The notes below the pieces were generated by a model, which was not told the origin of the DNA, did not search any database, and was given only the letters and a program-made list of their open reading frames with translations. Both the position numbers and the translations under genes were made by a program. This document shows, in pieces, positions 39,079 to 40,450 of a stretch of 64,000 nt of DNA. Position 1 is the stretch's first letter. Each line of letters begins with the position of its first letter. This stretch comes from Cyclobacteriaceae bacterium. GTDB taxonomy: Bacteria > Bacteroidota > Bacteroidia > Cytophagales > Cyclobacteriaceae. The stretch spans positions 30,195-94,194 of the forward strand of contig JAOUDZ010000011.1 of assembly GCA_029858965.1 (NCBI GenBank). Direction: 5' to 3'.

Positions 39079-39888
39079 TTACCAAAAGAAAAAGATTATA
39101 CTGAGCAATGACCTCTTCTTGCCCGAGGTATCGCCTTTGCCATCATCTTTCTTCCGATAGGATTTCAGCAAGACAAATTGCTTAAACCGAACCCATCGTT
39201 CAAACAGCTTAAAGTTGCCTTTGAATTTCCGGTGACGGTGATGCACTAATTCGCCATCGGGTGTAACCAATGTCTTGGTTCTCTCCATTTCCAGTGCCAA
39301 AGCCTGCGCTGCTTTGGTCTCTGCCGAAGCCTTGATTTTTGCCTCCGCTTCTGCCGGATCGAAGAGCATGGCGGTACACATACAGTTGTTCCTTTCCTTG
39401 CTCACCAGAATATCGTAGTTGACGCAACTGCGGCATCCCTTCCAAAATTCTTCATCGCGTGTCAATTCAGAATAGGTAACAGGTTCATAACCCAGATCAG
39501 AGTTAATCTTCATCACCGCCAATCCAGTTGTTAACCCAAAAATTTTAGAGGTAGGATATTTTTCCCTGGACAGATCAAATACTTCGCGCTTGATCTGCGT
39601 TGCTACACCGGTTTTTCTGTAGGCTGGCGCCACGATTAACCCGGAATTCGCCACGTACTTTCCGTGTTCCCATGCCTCGATATAACAAAAGCCTACCCAA
39701 GTACCTTCCGCTGTCAGCGCAATGACAGCTTTTCCTTCCTCCATCTTCTTTGTGATGTATTCGATTGAGCGTTTGGCTATTCCGGTGCCTCGTGCTTTCG
39801 CCGATTCCTCCATCTCCATGATGATGGTTTCAGCGTATTGAATATCGCCAGGCGTGGCAAGCCTGACAATTAGTTTTTGATTCTCCAA
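39079..39888 (-). CDS. GNAT-family N-acetyltransferase, first structural gene of the arg operon (candidate N-acylglutamate synthase)
   Basis: LIVAPAYRKTGVATQIKREVFDLSREKYP acetyl-CoA-binding motif; Cys-rich FWKGCRSCVNYDILVSKERNNCMCTAML; 100 nt upstream of argG. Confidence 0.85.
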   Translation of the reverse strand: MENQKLIVRLATPGDIQYAETIIMEMEESAKARGTGIAKRSIEYITKKMEEGKAVIALTAEGTWVGFCYIEAWEHGKYVANSGLIVAPAYRKTGVATQIKREVFDLSREKYPTSKIFGLTTGLAVMKINSDLGYEPVTYSELTRDEEFWKGCRSCVNYDILVSKERNNCMCTAMLFDPAEAEAKIKASAETKAAQALALEMERTKTLVTPDGELVHHRHRKFKGNFKLFERWVRFKQFVLLKSYRKKDDGKGDTSGKKRSLLSIIFFFW

Positions 39889-39937
39889 TGTATTAAATGA
39901 TTAATGATAATGAAATAAGAAACCGATGCTAATGCAC

Positions 39938-39970
39938 AAAAAGCGGAATGTCCTGGACACCACCTCTTTT
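39938..39970 (-). terminator. Terminator-like hairpin in the arg operon leader
   Basis: AAAAGaGGuGGUGU-ccagg-ACAUUCCgCUUUU(U): 5 bp, 1x1 mismatch, 2 bp, 1-nt bulge, 5 bp (two G-U), then U-run; lies between leader ORF and first gene. Confidence 0.6.
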
Positions 39971-39994
39971 CACAAACAAGTTGATATGAAGGTA

Positions 39995-40123
39995 TCAGAT
40001 ACGCACAAAGCGTGTTGGCCGGCGTCGCCTGGTCACCGTACAGGCAGGGACTAAGAACTGAACAGTTCTTCTGGAGTGGTACGCGGCAATAGCCGCAGTT
40101 ACGATGGTGATCAATGTTTTCAA
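39995..40123 (-). CDS. Putative arginine leader peptide (42 aa, TTG start; not in ORF track)
   Basis: MKTLITIVTAAIAAYHSRRTVQFLVPACTVTRRRRPTRFVRI*: 8 Arg (RR, RRRR, R, R), stop 106 nt upstream of the first arg-operon gene. Confidence 0.7.
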   Translation of the reverse strand: MKTLITIVTAAIAAYHSRRTVQFLVPACTVTRRRRPTRFVRI

Positions 40124-40197
40124 TTTCTTTCTTAGCGTTTAAAGTTGAACGTCAGATAAAATCCATTCAGTTTAATTTTAGTTAGAACTCATAAATG

Positions 40198-40205
40198 CAA
40201 AATTA
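40198..40205 (-). promoter_or_regulatory. Candidate -7 box (TAATTTTG) for the arg operon
   Basis: Matches TAnnTTTG, about 75 nt upstream of the leader ORF; no clear -33 TTG/TTTG. Confidence 0.45.
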
Positions 40206-40450
40206 AACGATAAAGTTTGGTAATAGATAACCTTTTGTTAAAAGACTTCGATTTTTTTTTCGCTAACGGAAGTTAGGATGAACGCTTTCGCGGTAAACTT
40301 GCAGGGCCCACAGAGAGTCATTACGTGAAAGCGCCGGATGCCAACAGCTCAGCAGCGCACCCAAAACATATTGTTAAAGTCGAACTGAATTTCAACCAGA
40401 GCGTGTTCTGAAATCCAACAGTCAGCATTCAGAAGGTTGAAATTCTCAAT

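What the first reader, a model, noticed from the sequence alone, without database searches (positions are those of the whole stretch)
39888..40210. Candidate ribosome-mediated arginine attenuator: Arg-rich leader peptide upstream of the arg operon
Seen directly: on the minus strand, between a TAATTTTG -7-like box (40205-40198) and the first arg-operon gene (39888), there is an unannotated 42-codon ORF (40123-39995, TTG start): MKTLITIVTAAIAAYHSRRTVQFLVPACTVTRRRRPTRFVRI*. Eight of 42 residues are Arg: RR, a run of four (AGG CGA CGC CGG), then two more. It uses all six Arg codons. The stop is followed 24 nt later by a terminator-like hairpin with a U-run, then the GNAT-argGCDF'BEH operon. Established knowledge: this is the layout of his/trp/leu/ilv-type attenuators, where the leader is rich in codons for the pathway end-product. 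Arginine operons are usually described as ArgR-controlled. Inference: Arg-tRNA starvation stalls the ribosome at RRRR and prevents termination. I do not recall this mechanism being described for arg in Bacteroidota, but I could not search.
Basis: partly seen in the sequence, partly recalled or inferred. Interest (0 to 1): 0.88.

Follow-up and report, generated by a model that had tools for sequence, protein, structure and literature searches.

The report
Arginine leader peptide before arginine operon
A tiny arginine-rich leader peptide sits in front of the arginine-making genes in this bacterium and in many relatives that lack the usual arginine repressor, so these bacteria probably sense arginine through a translating ribosome.

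Summary
The 42-codon ORF (40123-39995, minus strand) is real and selected: six congeners keep its TTG start, frame and stop, with 20 of 34 variable columns at codon position 3. Before the same first gene (a GNAT), an ORF with at least 4 Arg in its last 14 residues occurs in 58/110 Cyclobacteriaceae loci (2% in shuffles; 0/30 before hisG). Similar ORFs precede GNAT in Chitinophagaceae and other Bacteroidia. Peptide sequence and length vary; Arg codons near the stop persist. ArgR was found in none of 120 family or 150 order genomes; in seven class genomes argR lies directly before GNAT, where the leader otherwise sits. Leader Arg codons are strongly biased (AGG 95% vs 19% in genes; CGA 49% vs 8%), as expected of attenuator control codons. 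The hairpin after the stop covaries, but the intrinsic-terminator part is not general: the U-run is broken in one congener, 9/80 other Cyclobacteriaceae look terminator-like, and no competing antiterminator was found. Best reading: a widespread Arg-sensing leader-peptide attenuator in ArgR-less Bacteroidia, with a clade-specific, partly unknown readout. The evidence is comparative only; expression was not tested. No prior report was found in the open-access library searched.

The parts
40198..40205 (-). TAATTTTG, Bacteroidota -7-type promoter box
   Evidence: sequence; identical in six congeners; start of transcription inferred
39995..40123 (-). leader ORF, 42 codons, TTG start, MKTLITIVTAAIAAYHSRRTVQFLVPACTVTRRRRPTRFVRI*
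   Evidence: selection and conservation
40001..40030 (-). Arg control codons: AGG CGA CGC CGG (40030-40019), CGC (40012-40010), CGT (40003-40001)
   Evidence: conserved core is RRxRPTRFVR
39938..39968 (-). post-stop hairpin, CAG triloop, stem AAGAGGTGGTGTC/GACATTCCGCTTTTT, ending in the U-run
   Evidence: fold; covariation
39079..39888 (-). GNAT acetyltransferase, first gene of the operon (TTG start)
37780..39012 (-). argG
36813..37787 (-). argC
35605..36726 (-). argD
34658..35608 (-). argF' (N-acetylornithine carbamoyltransferase-like)
   Evidence: NF003384, 287.3 bits, cut-off 288
33849..34637 (-). argB
32742..33818 (-). argE-like deacylase
31250..32587 (-). argH

Best explanation
The element is a ribosome-mediated, arginine-responsive leader (attenuator) of the arginine biosynthesis operon, and it occupies the regulatory place that argR holds in other Bacteroidia. 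Transcription starts after the TAATTTTG box. A ribosome translates the leader and meets a cluster of Arg codons just before the stop. When Arg-tRNA is scarce it slows there, and this changes the folding or fate of the leader RNA so that the operon is expressed more. Shown here by comparison: selection on the ORF, Arg codons near the stop across many genera, biased Arg codons, a covarying hairpin after the stop, and absence of ArgR. Inferred: that the signal is Arg-tRNA charging, and the direction of control. Unknown: the readout. In this species it may be intrinsic termination at the hairpin with its U-run; in most relatives the hairpin lacks a U-run, so Rho-dependent termination, RNA stability or another step is as likely.
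For: Codon-position pattern and ungapped frame in six congeners. Arg-rich ORF before GNAT in 58/110 family loci with at least 4 Arg and 92/110 with at least 3, against 2% and 11% in shuffles. Other clades: 33/68 in the named set that is mostly Chitinophagaceae, 19/63 in other class members; hisG control 0/30 for Arg but 25/30 for His. Peptides differ widely between clades (PLRRFRNSFRA*, RFRPIRPLLG*, LSRRPRI*, PRPRRGC*, RRRPYMPRA*) while Arg near the stop persists. ArgR absent in 120/120 and 150/150 genomes and directly before GNAT in seven class genomes. Codon bias fits selective charging theory (PMC1183508). Covarying hairpin: 45 two-sided-change cells against 13.5 in shuffles.
Against: No expression, ribosome profiling or arginine-response data. 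No antiterminator was found: the modelled hairpin probability barely differs between stalled and terminating ribosomes in most relatives. The U-run is not general. Base composition before GNAT gives no hint of a Rho site relative to the his region. Some GNAT loci show no clear leader (for example L308, L311, L313, L331, L351), and the signal is weak in other Cytophagales (6/39 with at least 4 Arg).
Confidence: 0.8

Rival explanations
1. The leader is a nascent-peptide sensor: the ribosome arrests on the finished or nearly finished peptide in response to free arginine or a related metabolite, as in SpeFL or the fungal AAP, rather than because Arg-tRNA is scarce.
For: Within clades some non-Arg residues are kept too (VTRRxRPTRFVRI*, PLRRFRNSFRA*), and the last Arg is within five residues of the stop in nearly all.
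Against: Between clades the peptides share only Arg; strong synonymous-codon bias is not expected from peptide sensing alone; part of the within-clade conservation can be RNA pairing.
Confidence: 0.13
2. Classical terminator/antiterminator attenuation exactly, with intrinsic termination at the hairpin 39968-39938.
For: Hairpin followed by CTTTTT in the window species and similar in most congeners; 16 of 28 loci in the wider clade give some terminator-like hit; the own genome's his leader has a clear terminator.
Against: U-run broken in congener G004; several relatives lack it; 9 of 80 other Cyclobacteriaceae; no competing helix. This is one possible readout of the best explanation, so the two confidences overlap.
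Confidence: 0.3
3. The ORF makes a small Arg-rich protein that acts in trans, and its place before GNAT is only operon membership.
For: Coding selection.
Against: N-terminus and length not conserved, always tied to the GNAT start region, content matches the pathway, His equivalent before hisG; no homologue found in a 5.8-billion-protein set.
Confidence: 0.04
4. Chance or compositional artefact.
For: The best ORF is picked per locus; loci are related.
Against: Shuffles, reverse-complement controls and hisG controls carry the same selection and are far lower; codon-position pattern.
Confidence: 0.02

Closest known systems
his/trp/leu/thr/phe leader-peptide attenuators of Proteobacteria
   Same: Short leader ORF before a biosynthetic operon with a cluster of codons for its end product near the stop; biased choice of control codons; hairpin after the stop.
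   Different: End product is arginine; in most relatives the hairpin has no U-run, and no antiterminator pairing was found.
Salmonella speF leader orf34 (PMC6386406)
   Same: Consecutive Arg codons in a uORF make expression respond to arginine through ribosome pausing and RNA folding.
   Different: Controls ornithine decarboxylase, not arginine synthesis; works through Rho, RBS sequestration and RNase G; no peptide alignment with it was made here.
ArgR repressor control of arg genes
   Same: Same target pathway; argR sits at the same place, directly before GNAT, in seven ArgR-bearing Bacteroidia genomes.
   Different: A DNA-binding protein, not an RNA leader; found in none of the 120 family and 150 order genomes searched.
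Fungal arginine attenuator peptide (AAP; own knowledge)
   Same: Arginine-responsive upstream peptide.
   Different: Conserved peptide and eukaryotic translation control; here there is no peptide conserved between clades.
Leader-peptide attenuation before amino-acid operons in Flavobacterium psychrophilum (PMC9723704)
   Same: Same phylum; the paper reports strong clues for leader-peptide attenuation before amino-acid biosynthesis operons.
   Different: The main text does not name an arginine leader; its supplement (Table S7) could not be read here.

Membership tests
Ribosome-mediated transcription attenuator | short leader ORF under coding selection before the operon | tested here: met
Ribosome-mediated transcription attenuator | cluster of codons for the operon's end product, above chance and specific to this operon | tested here: met
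Ribosome-mediated transcription attenuator | intrinsic terminator (hairpin plus U-run) between leader and first gene | tested here: inconclusive
   present but modest in the window species; not conserved through the genus or family
Ribosome-mediated transcription attenuator | mutually exclusive antiterminator that depends on ribosome position | tested here: not met
   no drop in hairpin probability on stalling in most relatives, by a simple thermodynamic model; no conserved alternative helix seen in the clade alignments. Filed therefore as working like an attenuator, not as a proven classical member
Ribosome-mediated transcription attenuator | arginine-dependent read-through | not testable with these tools
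   needs experiment
ArgR regulon | ArgR encoded in the genome | tested here: not met
   PF02863 absent in own genome, 0/120 family, 0/150 order; control genomes positive, including Bacteroides ihuae
SpeFL / AAP type arrest peptide | arrest sequence conserved at peptide level | tested here: not met
   C-termini differ between clades; arrest itself not tested
Known riboswitch or other Rfam RNA family | match to an Rfam model | tested here: not met
   no match in the window, in the leader at E up to 1, or in 13 relatives

The most novel reading that the evidence does not exclude
ArgR-less Bacteroidia use a class-wide Arg-codon leader whose readout is not an intrinsic terminator but a conserved, covarying hairpin (UAYGN pentaloop in Cyclobacteriaceae, NAG triloop in the window's clade, a stop-codon-spanning hairpin in Chitinophagaceae): an attenuation mechanism with a new output step, exchanged with ArgR at the same genomic place.
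Probability: 0.4. Interest if true: 0.82.

Novelty: new variant of a known kind. Interest (0 to 1): 0.7.

Why it matters
Arginine synthesis is a textbook case of repressor control, and an amino-acid attenuator for the arg operon is not in the usual list (own knowledge). A leader present from Cytophagales to Chitinophagales, in genomes without ArgR, would explain how these bacteria control arginine synthesis and would be a clean case of a protein repressor and an RNA leader replacing each other at one locus. The post-stop hairpin with a conserved loop but no U-run makes an open question testable: how attenuation is read out in Bacteroidota. The leaders also escape annotation: a search of about 5.8 billion predicted proteins returned no relative of this one (short queries are at a disadvantage there).

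Tried and rejected
Classical 2:3 antiterminator pairing (for example GAUACC at the stop with GGUGUC in the hairpin arm): possible in the window species by eye but fails in relatives, and modelling shows no switch. Rho site by composition: C and G content before GNAT equals that of the his leader region. Rfam: no match. Protein homologues of the leader: none. A first alignment mixed orientations and was replaced. A first codon test used a wrong ORF for the window species and was replaced. ArgR-bearing genomes were inspected for Arg-rich ORFs before argR; no consistent leader was seen.

Full report
Observation. The sequence is as described: a TTG-start ORF at 40123-39995 on the minus strand, eight Arg residues using all six Arg codons, a TAATTTTG box at 40205-40198, a hairpin 24-26 nt after the stop, and then GNAT-argG-argC-argD-argF'-argB-argE-argH. 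Of 44 ORFs of 180 aa or more in the window, only the GNAT has an upstream ORF with four or more Arg in its last 14 residues.

Conservation in the genus. Five congeners have the leader. In the correctly oriented alignment the promoter stretch, the TTG start, the ungapped frame and the stop are kept. Variable columns fall 8, 6 and 20 on codon positions 1, 2 and 3 (0, 1 and 5 in the last 14 codons), and synonymous changes are about twice the neutral expectation. The conserved C-terminus is VTRRxRPTRFVRI*. The run of four Arg is special to the window species; the others have RRPR. An earlier version of this test used a wrong ORF for the window species and is discarded.

Conservation beyond the genus. 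The GNAT is present in 111 of 120 genomes of the family, which named relatives place in Cyclobacteriaceae. Upstream of it, usually ending 80-150 nt before the start, lies a short ORF with Arg near its C-terminus. With a fixed rule (at least 4 Arg in the last 14 residues, stop 50-250 nt upstream) 58 of 110 loci qualify, against 2% of dinucleotide shuffles and 2 of 110 reverse-complement controls; at 3 or more Arg it is 92 of 110 against 11%. The same rule finds 33/68 in the named set that is mostly Chitinophagaceae, 19/63 in other class members, 6/39 in other Cytophagales and 0/30 upstream of hisG in the same family; there His-rich leaders appear instead in 25/30. The leaders differ in length and sequence (PLRRFRNSFRA*, RFRPIRPLLG*, RRPLGV*, FPRR*, LSRRPRI*, PRPRRGC*, RRRPYMPRA*), so Arg codons near the stop are what persists. 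The loci are not phylogenetically independent, and the rule picks the best ORF per locus; the shuffles carry the same selection.

ArgR. The ArgR C-terminal domain is absent from the own genome, from 120/120 family genomes and 150/150 order genomes, while control genomes, including a Bacteroides, ring. In the class, 12 of 297 genomes have it. In seven of these (G296, G336, G370, G401, G431, G459, G510) argR lies directly upstream of the GNAT on the same strand; an eighth genome with both, G373, has only a match at the 25-bit cut-off, far from its GNAT. No consistent Arg leader is seen before argR. The leader thus holds the place that argR holds elsewhere.

Codons. Leader Arg codons are not used as in genes: in part of Cyclobacteriaceae AGG is 95% against 19% in neighbouring coding sequence, in the mostly Chitinophagaceae set CGA is 49% against 8%, in the window's clade AGG plus CGA are 51% against 19%. 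Selective charging theory predicts such bias for attenuator control codons, and selective charging in the Arg isoacceptor family has been verified (PMC1183508). RNA pairing may add to the bias, since some of these codons lie in helix arms.

The hairpin. In the window's clade the post-stop hairpin has an NAG triloop closed by C-G and a stem that varies by compensatory change: 88% of cells paired, 45 cells changed on both sides against 13.5 in shuffles, and no slid version comes near. The cores were chosen for pairing next to the loop, so this is read together with the finding rate, 17 of 27 against 2% in shuffles. In the other Cyclobacteriaceae most loci share a hairpin with a UAYGN pentaloop (66 of 92 family leaders, 1.6% in shuffles) and very different stems. 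In Chitinophagaceae the hairpin spans the leader's stop codon (CUGAYAGG...CCUGUCAG). So the post-stop structure is under selection but differs by clade.

Is it a terminator? In the window species it may be: about -11 kcal/mol and CTTTTT. But congener G004 has CTCTAG in that place, 9 of 80 other Cyclobacteriaceae score as terminator-like, and the modelled hairpin probability is similar with a ribosome stalled at the first Arg codon and one at the stop. The own genome's his leader shows what a strong terminator looks like in this organism (-18.7 kcal/mol with a long U-run). Composition before GNAT gives no hint of a Rho site. The output step is therefore open. These are simple thermodynamic models and do not exclude kinetic or protein-assisted switches.

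Literature. In the open-access library searched, no paper found describes an arginine leader for arg biosynthesis in Bacteroidota; most subscription papers are not held. The nearest are Salmonella speF, where two consecutive Arg codons in orf34 make expression respond to arginine (PMC6386406, abstract read), and a Flavobacterium psychrophilum transcriptome that reports clues for leader-peptide attenuation before amino-acid operons without naming arginine in the passages found (PMC9723704). No Rfam family matches.

Verdict. An Arg-sensing leader of the arg operon is the best explanation (0.8); its sensing step is most likely Arg-tRNA supply, with nascent-peptide sensing as the main rival (0.13). 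The intrinsic-terminator rival overlaps with the best explanation, since it is one possible readout of it. Nothing here tests expression.

Noticed in passing
L281 (own genome, contig C123, his operon): Textbook His attenuator: leader HHHHHIKHNVRGRAVV* followed by a -18.7 kcal/mol terminator with a U-run; useful internal contrast to the Arg leader.
   Followed up: partly
L266, L267, L270, L271, L289 (hisG upstream, other Cyclobacteriaceae): A second kind of His leader ending VHHFHHSS* or similar, followed by GGAGGAA and conserved sequence but no strong terminator; it may share the unknown readout.
   Followed up: no
L019-L116, 10-60 nt after the leader stop: Hairpin with conserved UAYGN pentaloop and freely varying stem; no U-run in most; no Rfam match in the loci tested.
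   Followed up: partly
L147-L195 (Chitinophagaceae): The leader stop codon lies inside the 5' arm of a highly conserved hairpin CUGAYAGG...CCUGUCAG; an overlapping second small ORF (MLxGR...Q*) is kept as a by-product or as a second leader.
   Followed up: partly
L160 and L190: Records titled Beijerinckiaceae and Oligoflexia carry a Bacteroidota-type GNAT; probably misbinned metagenome contigs.
   Followed up: no
40451-45388 (-): 1645-aa putative type IX secretion sortase PorU2 (NF052324, 1026.9 bits) directly upstream of the arg promoter.
   Followed up: no
39079-39888 (-): The GNAT has a C-terminal stretch of about 85 residues beyond the core shared family-wide; it aligns only in nearer relatives.
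   Followed up: no
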